This document shows, in pieces, positions 5,080 to 11,926 of a DNA stretch of 32,545 nucleotides. The notes below the pieces were generated by a model. It saw only the letters and a program-made list of their open reading frames with translations. It made no database searches and was not told the origin of the DNA. Positions within the stretch are counted from its first letter, which is position 1. The number at the start of each line of letters is the position of its first letter. Position numbers and translations under genes: made by a program. Where the stretch lies: contig JAKCCV010000028.1 in assembly GCA_021838785.1 (NCBI GenBank), positions 1 to 32,545 on the forward strand, given 5' to 3'. The stretch is from Acidobacteriota bacterium. Lineage in GTDB: Bacteria; Acidobacteriota; Terriglobia; UBA7540.

Positions 5080-6150
5080 TTAGTAGAATTTGCCCGTGTA
5101 GTTGGTGGGGTTCGCAAGTTTACCGGAGCAGAGCCGATCTATAGTAGGGTCGCAACAGGGCTCCGAGTTTTCTCCATAGCCGCACGACCAGCCGGAAAAA
5201 TCGCCGAGCGTATAAAGGCCGACGCTTTCGTTCGGCGCCAGCGGCAGAACCAGCAGATTGTAATTGCCGGGAGGAACACCCAATATGTTAAACGTTCCAT
5301 CCGAATTCGTCAGGCGATCCATGATGACGTTGCCGGTGGAGACATCCACGACGAGCACCTGGGCGGCAAAGGCTCCCGTGCCGGCCAACTCTACCGTCCC
5401 CGAGAGGTCGCCGGTCGAAGCCGCAAAGTTTGGCGAAGGATAAAGAAAGGCAATGCCCAAAAGATCGTCCAAGGATAAGGAGGTGCGATTGCCGGCAGCC
5501 GTGGTGTCGCCGAAAGGGAACATCACGGCGTCCGCCAAGCCGCTATGATCCAAGCCCAGCAAATGACCAATTTCGTGCAAGGCAACGGATTCCAAGACAA
5601 ACTGATTGGGGCCCGGGGAGAGTGAGGTCGTGAACTGGATTTGAGGATTAAACTCGATGTCGGCGTCAACCAACTGCGATGGAAGCACGCTGGTTTCTTG
5701 CTGGCCATTGCACGAATAGGTGGTTCCGGCCGGTGAAACCGTCGAGATTTCGGTAAAGGCGATCGTGCCGGTGGGGAAGTCCGCGGTGTTCGTATCGGTA
5801 AATCCGATGACGTTCTGGCAATCGTTAGCGTTGGGAGCGGTGAGGTTGCTTGTTCCGGCATCGGTTGCCTTCAAATCCGTCAATACGAGGTTGTTGAACG
5901 GCGCCGGCGTGTTTTCCCACATGGAGAACGCATTGTCAATGACCTGTTGGACCGTATCACCGCCCGTGGTCGAGATGTTGGTGCCGGTCGTCGGGTTGAC
6001 GTAGTAGGTAACGCTGTCATTGGGCCATCGGCTCGGCTGAGGCGTTCCACTCACGTCATCCTGAAACGGATTATAAGCCAGGGCCATGCAGGAGACGGAG
6101 AACAGGGCAACCGCTAACAACCATCGCCTGGCTACCGATGGGCAATTCAT
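5080..6150 (-). CDS. Secreted matrixin-like zinc metalloprotease with CarboxypepD_reg domain
   Basis: This is a 356-residue exported protein. The signal peptide spans residues 1-25 (ends CMALA). A metzincin active site, HEIGHLLGLDH, lies at 192-202 with zinc-binding His192, His196 and His202 and catalytic Glu193. It is followed by a Met-turn (AVMFP, 208-212) and the SLSLDDLLGIAFLYP helix typical of M10-like peptidases. Residues about 246-320 form a carboxypeptidase-regulatory-like beta domain (GDLSGTVELAG...NSDGTFNILGVPPGNYNLLVLP). The tail is cysteine-rich (SWSCGYG, PCCD, RLCSG). GAGGAACG lies before the ATG. It is the last gene of a tight three-gene operon, six bases after the previous stop. 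The substrate is unknown; extracellular protein degradation or processing of its operon partners is possible. Confidence 0.8.
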   Translation of the reverse strand: MNCPSVARRWLLAVALFSVSCMALAYNPFQDDVSGTPQPSRWPNDSVTYYVNPTTGTNISTTGGDTVQQVIDNAFSMWENTPAPFNNLVLTDLKATDAGTSNLTAPNANDCQNVIGFTDTNTADFPTGTIAFTEISTVSPAGTTYSCNGQQETSVLPSQLVDADIEFNPQIQFTTSLSPGPNQFVLESVALHEIGHLLGLDHSGLADAVMFPFGDTTAAGNRTSLSLDDLLGIAFLYPSPNFAASTGDLSGTVELAGTGAFAAQVLVVDVSTGNVIMDRLTNSDGTFNILGVPPGNYNLLVLPLAPNESVGLYTLGDFSGWSCGYGENSEPCCDPTIDRLCSGKLANPTNYTGKFY

Positions 6151-6156
6151 CGTTCC

Positions 6157-7053
6157 TCACCTCACCTGAGCAATCATGGAGCGGCCGAGAAGCTGGGTGT
6201 TGGCCGCCTGCTCGCTCGTGGCCTGGATCCTGACGCTCTCGCCGCGGATCGTGACTTCATTCCAGAAAATCTGCCACTGCGGACCGACCCGTTGCGCCAA
6301 TCCCTCGATGCGGCTGCCGGCAGGAATTACGACGCCATGGCTCGGGAATAAATCCAATAGCGTATGTCCTTCGATCCCGAAGCGTCCCACACCACGAAAT
6401 GATGTCCGGTCAATGACCACGGGAATCATCGTGCCGGGGGGGATCGAAATCGGCTGGGAGAGCACGCGGGTAATGGCGGCGTCGAATTCGCCCAAGGTGG
6501 GCGTCGGGCCAATCTGTTGGCTTTTTTCTCCGAGGGGCAGAGTCCCAAAGGGCAGGCCGAGGCGCGCCACTCCTGTTTTCCCGCTAAAGACGCGGTAGGC
6601 CCCTTGCGCCATGCCGACAGGAAGATAGCGTCCCTTGGGACCCGGCTCCAAAAACAGGACATACTGGCCGGTAGGACGAAAGTGGACGGTGCCCGGAACC
6701 AGAACGTGAAAATGACCGATCGTGCCACCAGGTTGCTGAATCACCACCGTTGAAGAAGGATGGCCCTTCAGCGTTTCCTCAACGGAGACCGTCGTGAAAG
6801 TGAAGATTCGTGTGTGTTGGGCATTCCAACGGGTCACCTGCGAAGTGACCCTGCCCCGAACAATCACCGTGGCCGCCTGCGCAAGCTGCGCCAGGCTCAT
6901 GTGGACCAAGGTCGTGGCATCACCCGCCGAACTGAGAAGAAAAGCCGCGCACAACGTCAGCGTCGCTACGCGGACGCGCCGCGAGGTGAACCGCATCGGG
7001 AAAGAACGTCGAAGCAGCCGAGCTTCCCGCAGGACGAGTTTGCGCAATTTCAT
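6157..7053 (-). CDS. Secreted protein of unknown function, partner of the metalloprotease
   Basis: This is an about 298-residue exported protein. After a basic N-terminus there is a hydrophobic stretch (VATLTLCAAFLLSSAGDA) that looks like a signal peptide or anchor. The mature region contains AATVIVRGRVTSQVTRWN, IFTFTTVSVEETLKG and VIQQPGGTIGHFHVLVPG. This is a pattern I have met in secreted proteins encoded next to matrixin-like proteases, but no biochemical role is known to me. The second half (about 200-300) is a beta-rich region (GTMIPVVIDRTSFRGVG...). Starts at 7068 (GTG), 7059 (GTG), 7053 (ATG) and 6996 (ATG) are possible. The first three overlap the upstream stop region or lie right after it, implying translational coupling. 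Confidence 0.6.
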   Translation of the reverse strand: MKLRKLVLREARLLRRSFPMRFTSRRVRVATLTLCAAFLLSSAGDATTLVHMSLAQLAQAATVIVRGRVTSQVTRWNAQHTRIFTFTTVSVEETLKGHPSSTVVIQQPGGTIGHFHVLVPGTVHFRPTGQYVLFLEPGPKGRYLPVGMAQGAYRVFSGKTGVARLGLPFGTLPLGEKSQQIGPTPTLGEFDAAITRVLSQPISIPPGTMIPVVIDRTSFRGVGRFGIEGHTLLDLFPSHGVVIPAGSRIEGLAQRVGPQWQIFWNEVTIRGESVRIQATSEQAANTQLLGRSMIAQVR

Positions 7054-7055
7054 CC

Positions 7056-7988
7056 TCACTGAGTACACCCTGTCGCCGGACAGATCCGGATCCCTCCGGG
7101 GAAAGCCGCCAGCTCGCCCGCAGCATCCGTCACCATGAGGTTACGCGGACCTACCGCCGCGTCCGGCAGGACAACAATCTGGAATGTGGCGCAAGGGTAG
7201 GCTGGCGTTCCTTGGGTTGTGCAGTACTGAACACTGGTTGGGACAACGTTCACATCCGTAACATTCGAGGGATGGCTGACGGTAAACGTTGTGCCGGAGA
7301 CGATTCCCTCGCCCACAACAAAGAGGATGGGCGATGAGCCGGCGGTCACTTCCACACCCGTGCTTCCAGCCGTGCACGTGCTGCCCGGGGCTGTGGAAGG
7401 GCAGGTCCCTATCGCGAAAAGAGACAAGGACGCGATGGCCACCGTGGCCGAGGCGGATTTGGTGGAGTCTGCCTGGCTCGTCGCCGTTACGGTGACCGTG
7501 GTGCTGGGAATCTGCGGGGCGAGGTTGAGCGTGCCAACAGAAACGATCGAACCCCCGGCGCAGGAGCTTGGCTGTGAAAAATTGCAGTTGGTTCCTCCCG
7601 CAGCCACGGAAAAGGAAGTTGGCGCGGTTGCGAGCGGGTTGGGAAGAGGGGTTGGGCTTGGCGCCGTGTAAACGCCGTTGGAGGTGATTGTGCCCAGTTG
7701 TGCGTTGCCGCCTACCACGGGGCTGATGCCCGGAGCACTGACGCTCCAGGTGACGGCGGTGTTGCTGGTTCCCGTCACGGTGGCGGTGAATTGCGCGACT
7801 CCCTGAAACGGCACATTTGCCGAGGACGGAGAGACACTGACGGTGACAGGCGGAGGCGGGGTGCTGCCGCCACCACTACTACTGCTACCGCCGCCACCAC
7901 CACAGCCGACTGCAAGCGTTGTCAACACCAACGTGACGGATGCCAAAGGAACCGTCGGTCGCCGAAATTTTTTCGTCTCTCGATTCAC
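7056..7988 (-). CDS. Ig-like surface lipoprotein
   Basis: The 310-residue protein starts from a GTG. The N-terminal region MNRETKKFRRPTVPLASVTLVLTTLAVGC ends in a lipobox (LAVG-C), followed by a flexible Gly/Ser/Pro linker (GGGGGSSSSGGGSTPPPP). Then comes VTVSVSPSSANVPFQGVAQFTATVTG, the opening of a bacterial Ig-like (Big_2-type) domain. The second half includes another possible beta-sandwich (VEVTAGSSPILFVVGEGIVSGTTFTVS, IPT/TIG-like). It ends with a short Cys pair (IRICPATGCTQ). It is probably anchored to a membrane and displayed at the cell surface or in the periplasm. It is the first gene of the metalloprotease operon; the ribosome site is weak. Confidence 0.65.
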   Translation of the reverse strand: MNRETKKFRRPTVPLASVTLVLTTLAVGCGGGGGSSSSGGGSTPPPPVTVSVSPSSANVPFQGVAQFTATVTGTSNTAVTWSVSAPGISPVVGGNAQLGTITSNGVYTAPSPTPLPNPLATAPTSFSVAAGGTNCNFSQPSSCAGGSIVSVGTLNLAPQIPSTTVTVTATSQADSTKSASATVAIASLSLFAIGTCPSTAPGSTCTAGSTGVEVTAGSSPILFVVGEGIVSGTTFTVSHPSNVTDVNVVPTSVQYCTTQGTPAYPCATFQIVVLPDAAVGPRNLMVTDAAGELAAFPGGIRICPATGCTQ

Positions 7989-8169: not shown

Positions 8170-8652
8170 TTAGGTCGAAGGTGGAAGTCCACCGCTATTC
8201 ACAGCATCGGGTTGCACGGCGGGTAGTTGGTGGGAAAAAGCGTCAAAAAACTGTTGGACCATTTGCTGTGCGGCTGCTTGCATCATGCGCTGACCCACGG
8301 AGGCAATCATACCGCCGATTTGGACCTCACCCGAATAGCTTATGAGGGTTCCGCCGTTTTGCACGGTCAAGGAAATGGTTCCCTCACCCTTCAAAAAACC
8401 GCCCGCGCCTTTCCCCTCAATCTTCATCCGGAAACTCTCCGGCGGCAACGCATCCAGAATTTGCACGCGACCCTGATAAGTTCCTTTAATGGAGGCAATG
8501 CCAATTTTGAGCGTCGCCTGGTAGCTCCCGTCGGGTTGTGGGTCGAGCTTTTCGCAGCCGGGCAGCGCCTGAGCAAGCGACAGCGGATCCATGAGGCAGC
8601 GGTAAACCACCTCGCGCGGCGCAGCGAGTTGACGAGACCCTTCGACTTTCAT
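8170..8652 (-). CDS. coxG: CoxG-family SRPBCC protein
   Basis: The 160-residue product opens MKVEGSRQLAAPREVVYRCLMDPLSLAQALPGCEKL, the hallmark of CoxG (carbon monoxide dehydrogenase subunit G). The rest has YQATLKIGIASIKGTYQGRV and GEGTISLTVQNGGTLISYSGEVQIGGMIASVGQRMM. These proteins adopt the START/SRPBCC fold. In Oligotropha CoxG is implicated in membrane anchoring of CO dehydrogenase. The gene is last in the coxSLMG operon, 24 bases after coxM. The C-terminal helix (QAAAQQMVQQFFDAFSHQL) is amphipathic, consistent with peripheral membrane attachment. The substrate of the partner enzyme is uncertain. Confidence 0.88.
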   Translation of the reverse strand: MKVEGSRQLAAPREVVYRCLMDPLSLAQALPGCEKLDPQPDGSYQATLKIGIASIKGTYQGRVQILDALPPESFRMKIEGKGAGGFLKGEGTISLTVQNGGTLISYSGEVQIGGMIASVGQRMMQAAAQQMVQQFFDAFSHQLPAVQPDAVNSGGLPPST

Positions 8653-8676
8653 GGCAAGGAATCGCGGCCGGCGCGC

Positions 8677-9546
8677 TCAGGGGTTGGCTCTTTCGAGGGC
8701 CAGTTCCAAAGCCCGCCGCACATAGACCGAGGCCAGATGTTTCCGGTATTCGGCGGAGGCAAACAAATCCGAATTCGTTTGCACTCCGTCGGCGGCTCGA
8801 GCTGCGGCTTCGGCGAGGCGTCGCGCCGTGGGCGGCTTTCCCAGGAGTTCGCGTTCGACCGCAGCGGCCCGATAAGCCTTCGGTCCAATCCCGGTCACTC
8901 CAATGGCCACGCGCTCTATGTGCGCGGCCTCATTCAACGCCAGGCGGACGCCGACGCCCACCACGGCAAAGCCGGAAGCCGGTTGGCGAAGCTTAAGGTA
9001 GGTGTCTCCGGCCCGCCGAGGGAGCGGGGGCAACCGGACCGCCGTCAAAATCTCTCCCGGCGCGAGCGCCGTGGTCATCAGGCCCACAAAGAAATCTTGC
9101 GCGGCGATCCAGCGTTCGCCGCCCGCGCTGTTCGCCCTTATCTCCGCATCGAGAGCCAGAATGGCCGCCGGCCAGTCCGCAGCCGGGTCGGCGTGAGCCA
9201 GACTTCCTCCCAGCGTGCCAAGATTGCGAACTTGCGCGTCGCCGATTTCGCGCGCCGTTTCGGGCAGCAACGGACATTTTTCCCGGAGCAAAGAGGAGGA
9301 TTCGATTTGAAAGTGGGTGGTCAGCGCGCCGATTTCAATCCAGCCGTCCGATTCGCGAATGTACCGCAGTTCGCTGAGCCGCCCGAGGTCAATCACATGG
9401 CGAGGCGAGGCCAGCCGCAGTTTCATCATGGGAAGCAGGCTGTGGCCGCCTGCCATCATTTTTCCCTCCTCGCCGAACTCGGTGACCAGCCGCAGCGCTT
9501 CTTCCAGCGACTGCGGCGAGTGATATTCAAACGGCTCGGGAATCAT
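8677..9546 (-). CDS. coxM: Molybdenum hydroxylase FAD-binding medium subunit (CoxM-like)
   Basis: The 289-residue product has the typical CoxM length. FAD contacts are present: AGGHSLLPMMKLRLASP at 32-48 (the AGGHS pyrophosphate loop) and TLGGSLAHADPAAD at 111-124 (TIGG-like loop). The C-terminal CO-dehydrogenase flavoprotein domain follows (TYLKLRQPASGFAVVGVGVRLAL, GIGPKAYRAAAVE). It passes electrons from the iron-sulfur subunit via FAD to an acceptor. AGGAG lies seven bases before the ATG. It sits 49 bases after coxL in the same transcript. Confidence 0.92.
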   Translation of the reverse strand: MIPEPFEYHSPQSLEEALRLVTEFGEEGKMMAGGHSLLPMMKLRLASPRHVIDLGRLSELRYIRESDGWIEIGALTTHFQIESSSLLREKCPLLPETAREIGDAQVRNLGTLGGSLAHADPAADWPAAILALDAEIRANSAGGERWIAAQDFFVGLMTTALAPGEILTAVRLPPLPRRAGDTYLKLRQPASGFAVVGVGVRLALNEAAHIERVAIGVTGIGPKAYRAAAVERELLGKPPTARRLAEAAARAADGVQTNSDLFASAEYRKHLASVYVRRALELALERANP

Positions 9547-9595
9547 GGTGAACTCCTGGCGTAGGTTGTTTCCAGTGTGTCAAACGCGGTTCACC

Positions 9596-11926
9596 TCACA
9601 CCACCTGGGGCGAGCCGCCCCTCAAGACTTGCCAAATTTTTTCCGGTTTGAGCGGCATATCTATATGCCGAACGCCCAATGGCCTGAGCGCATCCATCAC
9701 GGCGTTGACAATGGCAGGCGTGGAGCCGATGGTTCCCGCCTCGCCCACTCCCTTCACGCCCAGCGGATTGACCGGAGTCCGGGTCTCGGTGTTCGCCGTT
9801 TCAAACCAGCAGAACTGATGCGCCCTCGGCGCCGCGCAATCCATCAGGGTCCCCGTCAGAAGCTGGCCGTTTTCGTCATAGACGTGCTCTTCCCAGAGTG
9901 CTTGGCCGATGCCCTGAGCCAGCCCGCCGTGGATTTGGCCGTCCACCAGCATAGGGTTTAGGATGCGACCGCAATCGTCCACCGCAAAGTAGTTTCGCAG
10001 GTTTACCTCGCCGGTTTCGTTGTCAATCTCTACGACCGCCACGTGGGCGCCGAAAGGATAAGTGTAATTTGGCGGCTCAAAGACATAGTTTTCAACCAAC
10101 CCCGGTGCAAGTCCGGGCGGGAGTTGCTTGGCGAAATAGGCTTCTCCCACCACCTCGCCAAACTTGACGGACTTGGAACCGTCTTCCGTTTCGATTTTGC
10201 CGTCGCGGAAGACCAGTTCGCTCGGCTTCGCTCCCAGCTTGACAGCGGCAAGGCGAGCCATTTTTTTCTTAATGCGCTGCGCGGCGTGATAGATCGCCGT
10301 GCCGCCGACGGCCGTGGTGCGGCTGCCAAAGGTGCCAATGCCCATCGGGACTTGGTTTGTGTCGCCGTGATAAACCGTCACATCGTCGTACGGCACGCCC
10401 AACTCCTCGGCCACAATCTGCGCGAAGCTGGTTTCTTCTCCTTGACCGTGGGGCGAGGTTCCACTGAGCACCGTGACTTTCCCCGTGGGTTCAACGCGCA
10501 CCGTGCCGCTCTCCCAGCCGCCCGCCGGCATGCGACTGGAGGGGCCCATGGCGCAAATCTCCACATAGGTTGAAAGGCCAATGCCAAGATACTTCCCCTT
10601 TTTGCGAAGACGCGCTTGCTCGCGCCGCAGTTTCTTGTAGCCGGAAAGAGTCAAAACTTTTTTGAGGGTCTTTTGGTAATTGGCCGTGTCGTAGCTGACG
10701 CCGGTCGCGAGCACAATATCTTTGCCCGGCGGCGGAAAATTTTTCAGACGCACCTCCACCGGGTCGAGGTTCAGTTCGCGCGCCACCATATCCATCACGC
10801 GCTCGATGATATAGGTGGCTTCCGGCCGGCCGGCCCCGCGGTAAGCGTCGGTGGACATTGTGTTGGTAAAAACGCCCTTCGTTTCCACGAACACGGCTGG
10901 AATGTTGTAGCAGCCGAGAATCATCAGCGCGGTGAGCGTCGGAATGGCCGGCGTCAAGAGCTGATGATAGGCGCCGAGATTCGCGAGGATGTGGCATTTC
11001 AAGCCCATCACCTTGCCGTCCGGCCGGAAGTAGATCTCCAAATCATCAATCTGATCCCGACCGTGAATCGTCGCCATCAGGTTTTCTCGGCGGCTTTCAA
11101 TCCACTTCACCGGCTTGCCGAATTGGCGCGAAACAAAACAGGCGACCCCTTCCTCGGCGTAAACGTTCAGCTTGCTGCCAAAGGCGCCGCCCACCTCGGG
11201 CGCAATCACCCGCACGCGCGCTTCGTCCATGCCGGTCATGACGGCGAGTTGGGTTTTGAGCAGATGCGGAATCTGCGTGGAGGACCAAACCGTCAACGTG
11301 TCCTCGCCCGGCGAGTAACTTGCCACCACGCCCCGCGTCTCCATCGAAAGCGGGGCCAGGCGTTGGTTAACCAGCCGCTGCCGGATGACCTTGAGGCTGG
11401 CATCCGATTCGACAGCTTTCCAGTCGCCGCCTTCGAGCTTGGCAACAAAGGCAATATTGTCGCCCAATGATTCGTGAATGACCGGCGAATCCGAGGAAAC
11501 CGCCTTGTCGAGGTCGGTGATGGCGGGCAAAGGCTCGTAGTCCACCTCCACTTGGGCTGCGGCGTCAACGGCCTGGTAGCGGCCGCTCGCCACCACCACG
11601 GCGACGGGTTCGCCGACATATCGTACTCGGCGAAGCGCCAAGCAGGGATGCGGCGGCACCTTCAGACCTTCCATGCCCGCCGCGCAAGGAATCAAGCCCA
11701 GCCGTCCTTCGAGGTCGGCTCCGGTGTAAACGGCCAGGACGCCCGGCATCTTCTGCGCGGCCTCCGAGTGGATGGCTTTGATTTCCGCGTGGGCGTGCGG
11801 GCTGCGCACAAAGGCCAAGTAAAGCATCCCGCACAACTGAATGTCATCCACGTAGTGGGAGCGACCTTGAATCAGCCGAGGGTCTTCCTTGCGTTTAATG
11901 CGTTCACCGAGCAGTTTAGACGACAT
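9596..11926 (-). CDS. coxL: Form II CoxL-type molybdopterin hydroxylase large subunit
   Basis: The 776-residue product fits the aldehyde oxidase/xanthine dehydrogenase large-subunit family. Motifs include GERIKRKEDPRLIQGRSHYVDDI at the N-terminus, GGAFGSK at 246-252 (molybdopterin cytosine dinucleotide contact), AYRGAGRPEA at 361-370, and GVGEAG at 726-731 with the putative catalytic base Glu729. The active-site loop AYRGAGR defines form II CoxL. True CO dehydrogenases (form I) have AYRCSFR with the Cu-binding Cys, which is absent here. CO oxidation is therefore unproven, and a purine, aldehyde or N-heterocycle substrate is equally possible. GGGAGGTGA precedes the ATG. No CoxD/E/F maturation genes are visible nearby. 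Confidence 0.92.
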   Translation of the reverse strand: MSSKLLGERIKRKEDPRLIQGRSHYVDDIQLCGMLYLAFVRSPHAHAEIKAIHSEAAQKMPGVLAVYTGADLEGRLGLIPCAAGMEGLKVPPHPCLALRRVRYVGEPVAVVVASGRYQAVDAAAQVEVDYEPLPAITDLDKAVSSDSPVIHESLGDNIAFVAKLEGGDWKAVESDASLKVIRQRLVNQRLAPLSMETRGVVASYSPGEDTLTVWSSTQIPHLLKTQLAVMTGMDEARVRVIAPEVGGAFGSKLNVYAEEGVACFVSRQFGKPVKWIESRRENLMATIHGRDQIDDLEIYFRPDGKVMGLKCHILANLGAYHQLLTPAIPTLTALMILGCYNIPAVFVETKGVFTNTMSTDAYRGAGRPEATYIIERVMDMVARELNLDPVEVRLKNFPPPGKDIVLATGVSYDTANYQKTLKKVLTLSGYKKLRREQARLRKKGKYLGIGLSTYVEICAMGPSSRMPAGGWESGTVRVEPTGKVTVLSGTSPHGQGEETSFAQIVAEELGVPYDDVTVYHGDTNQVPMGIGTFGSRTTAVGGTAIYHAAQRIKKKMARLAAVKLGAKPSELVFRDGKIETEDGSKSVKFGEVVGEAYFAKQLPPGLAPGLVENYVFEPPNYTYPFGAHVAVVEIDNETGEVNLRNYFAVDDCGRILNPMLVDGQIHGGLAQGIGQALWEEHVYDENGQLLTGTLMDCAAPRAHQFCWFETANTETRTPVNPLGVKGVGEAGTIGSTPAIVNAVMDALRPLGVRHIDMPLKPEKIWQVLRGGSPQVV

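What the first reader, a model, noticed from the sequence alone, without database searches (positions are those of the whole stretch)
5080..7988. Three-gene exported module: Ig-like lipoprotein, unknown secreted protein, metzincin protease
Three consecutive, nearly overlapping genes all encode exported proteins. The last is a matrixin-like protease with a CarboxypepD_reg domain and a Cys-rich tail. The middle protein has no known role. The tight coupling suggests a surface-anchored proteolytic unit, possibly with an inhibitor, chaperone or anchor partner. This is the best candidate for an undescribed system in the window.
Basis: partly seen in the sequence, partly recalled or inferred. Interest (0 to 1): 0.55.

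Follow-up and report, generated by a model that had tools for sequence, protein, structure and literature searches.

The report
Bacterial matrixin with TIMP-like partner
A soil bacterium carries, side by side, a relative of our tissue-remodelling proteases and a protein folded like the natural inhibitors (TIMPs) that hold those proteases in check in animals, and the same pairing recurs, sometimes fused into one protein, in two bacterial phyla.

Summary
The three genes are real, exported and conserved together. The last is an intact matrixin (PF00413, HEIGHLLGLDH, Met-turn). The 'unknown' middle protein is the interesting part: its AlphaFold model (pLDDT 91.5) is a TIMP-type domain plus a VirB10-CTD-like domain. 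The best solved match of the first is N-TIMP-3 (Z 11.0), aligned from mature residue 1 to TIMP residue 1, and its mature N-terminus (Thr-Thr-Leu right after the signal-peptidase site) is strongly conserved.

The TIMP-like domain occurs in 105 of 247 Acidobacteriota genomes and 86 of 111 genomes of a second phylum; 29 of 150 listed matches are fused to an M10 domain; some partners are dead matrixins.

Best reading: a dedicated TIMP-like inhibitor/zymogen partner of a bacterial matrixin, comparable to Listeria Mtz-Tim and Tannerella potempin-karilysin. Fold, linkage and fusion are shown; inhibition is inferred. The co-fold was inconclusive, and no sequence profile links it to Pfam TIMP.

The parts
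7056..7988 (-). Ig/TIG-like lipoprotein, 310 aa (GTG start, lipobox LAVGC); C-terminal 'GPRN..V.D..GE..AFPGG' domain
   Evidence: upstream ORF with the same C-terminal domain in 19 of 19 family-level loci with upstream sequence; that domain has one real copy in the own genome
6157..7068 (-). middle protein gene (GTG start at 7068 or ATG at 6996; start uncertain)
6448..6915 (-). TIMP/NTR-type OB-fold domain, mature residues 1-156; mature N-terminus TTLVHMSL begins at 6915
   Evidence: AF2 model; N-TIMP-3 Z 11.0, 117 aligned; N-terminal conservation
6160..6447 (-). VirB10/TrwE/CagY CTD-like beta domain, mature residues 157-252
   Evidence: Z about 11, 95 aligned
6148..6159 (-). junction TGA GGA ACG ATG: middle stop and protease start in the same frame
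   Evidence: sequence; translation under table 4
5080..6150 (-). matrixin (M10) protease, 356 aa: signal peptide, then short pro-segment YNPFQDDVSG, catalytic domain, tail
   Evidence: PF00413 E 2.2e-17; MMP-3 E 6e-9, karilysin E 3e-7; fold Z 14 with matrilysin
5545..5577 (-). zinc-binding motif HEIGHLLGLDH; Met of the Met-turn at 5521-5523
   Evidence: sequence
5248..5406 (-). CarboxypepD_reg-like domain (below curated cut-off)
5128..5184 (-). Cys-rich tail
   Evidence: sequence

Best explanation
The module is a secreted matrixin protease with its own dedicated TIMP-like partner, plus an Ig-like lipoprotein that probably holds the unit at the cell surface. Steps shown: the protease is an intact matrixin by sequence; the middle protein is predicted to have a TIMP-type domain whose mature residue 1 falls where residue 1 of TIMPs lies; the two travel together or fused in two phyla. 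Steps inferred: after signal-peptidase cleavage the N-terminal Thr-Thr-Leu enters the active-site cleft, the free amino group of residue 1 binds the zinc, and Thr2 points into the S1' pocket (TIMP mechanism, recalled). This keeps the protease silent in the periplasm or at the surface until it is released. In relatives where the domain is fused in front of the catalytic domain it would act in cis, in place of a pro-domain.
For: Linkage: 40 of 45 matches have an M10 match downstream on the same strand. Of the other 5, three run off a contig end (G035:C79, G021:C147, G046:C17) and two match only the C-terminal domain. Fold: N-TIMP-3 from its TACE complex Z 11.0, 2.8 A, 117 aligned; N-TIMP-1 from its MT1-MMP complex Z 10.7; generic OB folds only Z 5.5-6. 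In the read-through model the protease half matches MMPs (Z 14) and the middle half TIMPs, in two cases chains of the same PDB entry (3ma2, 6mav). Fusion: 29 of 150 listed TIMP-like matches lie in one frame with an M10 match, in 18 genomes; further ones lie in one ORF with a HExxHxxGxxH motif. N-terminus: Thr/Ser at position 1 in 71 of 97 predicted mature ends and at position 2 in 66 of 97; position 2 is Thr/Ser in 18 of 21 fused proteins listed by hand. Precedents: Listeria Mtz-Tim (PMC8235301) and KLIKK proteases directly preceded by potempin inhibitors (PMC7296668).
Against: The co-fold of the read-through chain gave no confident docking: pTM 0.48, residues 1-10 at mean pLDDT 71 against 73 alone. 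No sequence-level tie to TIMP: PF00965 finds nothing at these loci in 25 genomes, and the A3 profile finds no TIMP among PDB sequences. Foldseek's own E-values are weak (best row 1.8e-3, TIMP rows about 0.01-0.02). The TIMP cysteines are absent. At least five partners are matrixin-like proteins without the normal active-site motif (L102, L105, L134, L135, L155), so the pairing does not always serve to block catalysis. A small subclade has no protease neighbour seen (L125, L129, L131, L132), and 7 of 29 assessable loci of the second phylum have no metzincin motif next door. NTR-type folds also serve other roles (agrin, complement C3). In the 21 fused proteins position 1 is Thr/Ser in only 10.
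Confidence: 0.6

Rival explanations
1. The TIMP-like domain is a folding or secretion chaperone (a pro-domain working in cis or in trans) and not a lasting inhibitor: it escorts the matrixin across the envelope and is then removed.
For: Encoded upstream, often fused at the pro-domain position; retained next to inactive matrixins, which need folding but no inhibition.
Against: Most copies are separate proteins with their own signal peptide; the conserved mature N-terminus fits an active-site ligand better than a chaperone surface.
Confidence: 0.2
2. As reported for Listeria Mtz-Tim, the TIMP-like protein is the substrate: the protease cuts and releases it, and the released piece is the effector.
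For: The closest experimentally studied pair behaves so (PMC8235301, section 22).
Against: Here the domain begins at the signal-peptidase site with no N-terminal extension to cut off; a fifth of listed copies are fused to the protease.
Confidence: 0.1
3. The NTR/OB domain is a generic ligand-binding or targeting module that brings the protease to a polymer or to the envelope, and the VirB10-like domain docks it.
For: NTR folds in agrin and complement have other roles; one relative sits beside a trypsin-like protease instead (L187); a subclade has no protease neighbour seen.
Against: Strong bias for metzincin partners; TIMPs top the fold list.
Confidence: 0.1

Closest known systems
Animal TIMPs (N-TIMP) with matrix metalloproteinases
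   Same: OB/NTR fold by prediction, N-terminus placed alike, partner is a matrixin
   Different: no detectable sequence similarity; no TIMP cysteines; Thr1 where TIMPs have Cys1; extra VirB10-like domain; encoded beside or fused to the protease
Listeria Mtz-Tim (PMC8235301)
   Same: adjacent genes for a secreted metzincin and a TIMP-like protein
   Different: there the TIMP-like gene is downstream, phage-linked, Tim is a lipoprotein and is cleaved; here it is upstream and not a lipoprotein, and the window protein has no match in 50,697 phage records
Tannerella potempin A-karilysin (PMC7296668 and PMC4404884 passages; OB-fold structures recalled, that paper not held)
   Same: inhibitor gene directly upstream of a matrixin with a short pro-segment
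   Different: potempins are small lipoproteins; here a two-domain, non-lipidated protein with a TIMP-like free N-terminus; wide distribution and fusions
NCBIfam NF041905 MXAN_2677/MXAN_2678 metalloproteases
   Same: best named relative of the protease (E 8.8e-15 window; 1.3e-28 L090)
   Different: far below that family's cut-off (54.5 of 250 bits for the window protein); the model does not cover the partner

Membership tests
Matrixin (Pfam Peptidase_M10; MEROPS M10A is a recalled label) | PF00413 match above cut-off | tested here: met
   63.8 bits against 24
Matrixin (Pfam Peptidase_M10) | HExxHxxGxxH and Met-turn | tested here: met
   HEIGHLLGLDH, then VMFPF
Matrixin (Pfam Peptidase_M10) | proteolytic activity | not testable with these tools
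   none
TIMP family (PF00965) | sequence match to the family model | tested here: not met
   no match at these loci; 0 of 25 genomes over the cut-off
TIMP family (PF00965) | N-terminal Cys1 and conserved disulphides (recalled) | tested here: not met
   mature N-terminus is Thr/Ser; no conserved Cys in the alignments
TIMP family (PF00965) | TIMP/NTR OB fold | tested here: met
   Z 11.0 with N-TIMP-3 on a pLDDT 91.5 model
TIMP family (PF00965) | inhibits matrixins | not testable with these tools
   co-fold inconclusive
Potempins | inhibitor gene directly upstream of its protease | tested here: met
   position only; inhibition not tested
Potempins | small lipoprotein | tested here: not met
   signal ends AxA|TT, no lipobox, 252 aa mature
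VirB10 (T4SS) | CTD beta fold | tested here: met
   Z about 11 over residues 157-252
VirB10 (T4SS) | antenna helices in the CTD (recalled) | tested here: not met
   no helix in residues 157-252 of the model

The most novel reading that the evidence does not exclude
Pairing of a matrixin with a TIMP-fold inhibitor is an old bacterial invention, widespread in Acidobacteriota and in the phylum around the Myxococcales locus L091, in which the TIMP-like domain works either in trans or, when fused, as a built-in zymogen domain; the animal MMP-TIMP pair is either descended from it or a second evolution of the same zinc-capping N-terminus on the same fold.
Probability: 0.3. Interest if true: 0.85.

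Novelty: new variant of a known kind. Interest (0 to 1): 0.6.

Why it matters
TIMP control of matrix metalloproteinases is usually taught as animal biology. A bacterial family that couples the same two folds, as neighbours, as natural fusions and with dead-enzyme versions, would show how such control can arise. It would supply cysteine-free metzincin inhibitors, and it would give a function to a large unannotated secreted family: no Pfam or NCBIfam model matched the TIMP-like domain in the proteins scanned. It also makes a question testable: is the MMP-TIMP pair older than animals, or did the same solution evolve more than once?

Tried and rejected
Middle protein as TIMP by sequence: no PDB-sequence hit for profile A3, no PF00965 hit at these loci. 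Co-fold of both proteins as a read-through chain: no confident interface; I could not see PAE or coordinates, so this neither supports nor refutes. Mobile-element origin of the window protein: no tblastn match in plasmids or phages. Potempin structures did not appear among the 50 rows shown; that list does not exclude them. My first fusion count had a frame error and gave 1; one search corrects it to 29. In the fold alignment A5 I dropped L090, L091 and the truncated L083 protease and trimmed the N-termini of four proteases (L079, L080, L085, L089), because they misaligned in A4. The HMM of the Ig C-terminal domain was built from the same 19 upstream ORFs that it scores, so only their position and the copy number in the own genome are independent evidence. 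The signal-peptidase sites come from a simple AxA rule that misplaces some sites (for example L008, L019, L030). Literature: searches listed no report of this pair in Acidobacteriota or Myxococcota; the library holds only open-licence PMC papers.

Full report
What is there. The three genes at 7988-5080 on the minus strand are real and under purifying selection against the near relative L071 (dN/dS 0.23, 0.09 and 0.10 for Ig protein, middle and protease). The own genome is a 3.42-Mb assembly in 38 contigs; the nearest named loci are Acidobacteria/Terriglobia MAGs. The flanks look unrelated: a tRNA pseudouridine synthase gene, convergent, downstream, and a CoxG-family gene upstream.

The protease. 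PF00413 E 2.2e-17, zinc motif HEIGHLLGLDH and a Met-turn. Nearest solved sequences are MMP-3 (E 6e-9) and other MMPs, and karilysin (E 3e-7). In the read-through model it matches matrilysin and MT1-MMP at Z 14.1 over about 155 residues. After the signal peptide only about 15 residues (YNPFQDDVSG...) precede the catalytic domain; karilysin too has a short propeptide (PMC4404884, passages seen). An Asp switch there is my recall, not tested.

The middle protein. No Pfam or NCBIfam family. The AlphaFold model from 22 sequences has pLDDT 91.5 and pTM 0.83. Second-look alignment: residues 1-157 match N-TIMP-3 (3cki_B, TACE complex; Z 11.0, 2.8 A, 117 aligned, chain 1-121), N-TIMP-1 (3ma2_C, Z 10.7), agrin NtA and complement C3 NTR; generic OB folds fall to Z 5.5-6. 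Residues 157-252 match VirB10-type CTDs (Z about 11), and the model has no helix there. Foldseek alone is weak (TIMP rows E 0.01-0.02, probability 1.00). Sequence profiles do not reach TIMPs. So it is built like a TIMP but is not a member of the TIMP sequence family.

The N-terminus. In the aligned family the residues right after the AxA signal-peptidase site are almost always Thr/Ser-Thr/Ser-Leu/Val. In 97 distinct matches, with a site chosen by a rule that ignores the following residues, position 1 is Thr/Ser in 71 and position 2 in 66 (one further match was truncated and dropped). Of 21 fused proteins listed by hand from that call, position 2 is Thr/Ser in 18 and position 1 in 10. In TIMPs the N-terminal residue contacts the catalytic zinc: PMC9620172 (passage seen) says that an extra N-terminal alanine disturbs the Cys1-zinc interaction. 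That Thr2/Ser2 of TIMPs enters S1', and that serralysin inhibitors start Ser-Ser-Leu, is recall.

Linkage. In 61 genomes (own and relatives) the middle protein gives 45 matches in 39 genomes and PF00413 gives 95 matches in 50 genomes. Forty of the 45 have an M10 match on the same strand directly downstream, under 900 bases away. Conversely 55 of 95 M10 matches have no such neighbour, so the protease family is wider than the pair.

Across the phylum. With an alignment of the TIMP-like domain (A6), 105 of 247 genomes of the phylum match and 154 of 247 have PF00413. The outputs listed 150 matches of each; more exist. Of the 150 listed TIMP-like matches, 29 share one frame with an M10 match (18 genomes), 50 have one downstream (42 genomes), 71 have no listed M10 partner. 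I examined 32 of those 71 at DNA level: 10 have a HExxHxxG/NxxH/D/E motif in the same ORF, 13 in the next ORF, 2 have only HExxH, 7 none. Of the 7, L134, L135 and L155 precede matrixin-like proteins whose active-site histidines are gone (sequences; L135 passes PF00413's cut-off, L155 is below it, L134 matches only the related NCBIfam model). L125, L129, L131 and L132 form a subclade with a C-terminal hydrophobic stretch and no protease seen. In the 30 best loci, 26 have the motif fused or next; L102 and L105 precede PF00413 proteins with a broken motif, L097's neighbour is an M10 match, and L114 has none.

Beyond the phylum. One scan of genome contigs also returned a 'delta proteobacterium' (L090) and a Myxococcales MAG (L091); L090 has the pair, with a protease tail that looks like MYXO-CTERM. 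In the phylum around L091, 86 of 111 genomes match. Of the 30 loci fetched, one is cut, 22 of the other 29 have a metzincin motif in the next ORF and 7 have none; one of the seven (L187) precedes a trypsin-like protease.

Fusions. ORFs such as L123, L146 and L149 run signal peptide, TIMP-like domain, linker, matrixin and Ig-like, TIG or similar domains in one chain; L143 and L147 look alike by eye. L142 looks like two genes joined end to end with an internal hydrophobic segment. In the smooth fusions the domain occupies the pro-domain slot of an MMP zymogen.

Third gene. In 19 of 19 family-level loci with upstream sequence (L031, L034-L050, L085; L032, L033 and L051 are truncated) the ORF just upstream of the middle gene is an Ig/TIG-like exported protein with the same C-terminal domain; in the own genome that domain has one real copy. 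Outside the family it was found upstream clearly only in L055, and some protease ORFs carry their own C-terminal domains (L053 Soli_cterm, L054 TIG). I take the lipoprotein as surface anchor or scaffold; this is inference.

Co-fold. The middle and protease frames join through one TGA, so a read-through chain could be folded as the window's own. Result: pLDDT 77.7, pTM 0.48, residues 1-10 at 71 against 73 alone. No interface can be claimed.

Mechanism. Most likely an inhibitor/zymogen partner that caps the active site with its free N-terminus, in trans here and in cis in the fusions. Shown: predicted fold, linkage, fusion, N-terminal conservation. Inferred: binding, inhibition, zinc contact, release. 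The inactive-matrixin pairs warn that the complex may also have a non-catalytic role.

Known parallels. Listeria Mtz-Tim (PMC8235301; abstract and sections 20, 22 and 27 read): a metzincin and a TIMP-like lipoprotein, phage-linked, Tim cleaved by Mtz; [quoted passage not shown] Tannerella potempins (PMC7296668 passages): inhibitors directly upstream of KLIKK proteases, karilysin among them. The present family differs in free N-terminus, VirB10-like domain, breadth and fusions, and seven literature searches of an open-licence library listed no report of it.

Noticed in passing
L134:1062-2087, L135:1801-2919, L155:912-2216, L102:1945-3333, L105:540-1481: Matrixin-like proteins that lost active-site histidines (KEIGKFLGLAN, HNVGHFIGLGES, QEIGHFSGLGH) still sit directly behind a TIMP-like gene: pseudo-protease pairs.
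   Followed up: partly
L187:3-1304: TIMP-like gene followed by a trypsin-like serine protease instead of a metzincin.
   Followed up: no
L057 (G012:C13:18957-19298), L060 (G025:C3:97387-97737): The VirB10-CTD-like half of the middle protein occurs without the TIMP-like half and without an M10 match on the contig.
   Followed up: no
G217:C38:112722-129272: One genome carries three TIMP-like/M10 fusions and further M10 matches within about 17 kb of one contig.
   Followed up: no
L125, L129, L131, L132: A subclade of TIMP-like proteins ends in a hydrophobic stretch plus basic tail (e.g. WRLLRR) and has no protease neighbour seen; possibly membrane-anchored.
   Followed up: partly
window 8170-11926: A CoxG-family gene and two ORFs that by eye look like CO-dehydrogenase/xanthine-dehydrogenase-type medium and large subunits form a separate cluster upstream.
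   Followed up: no
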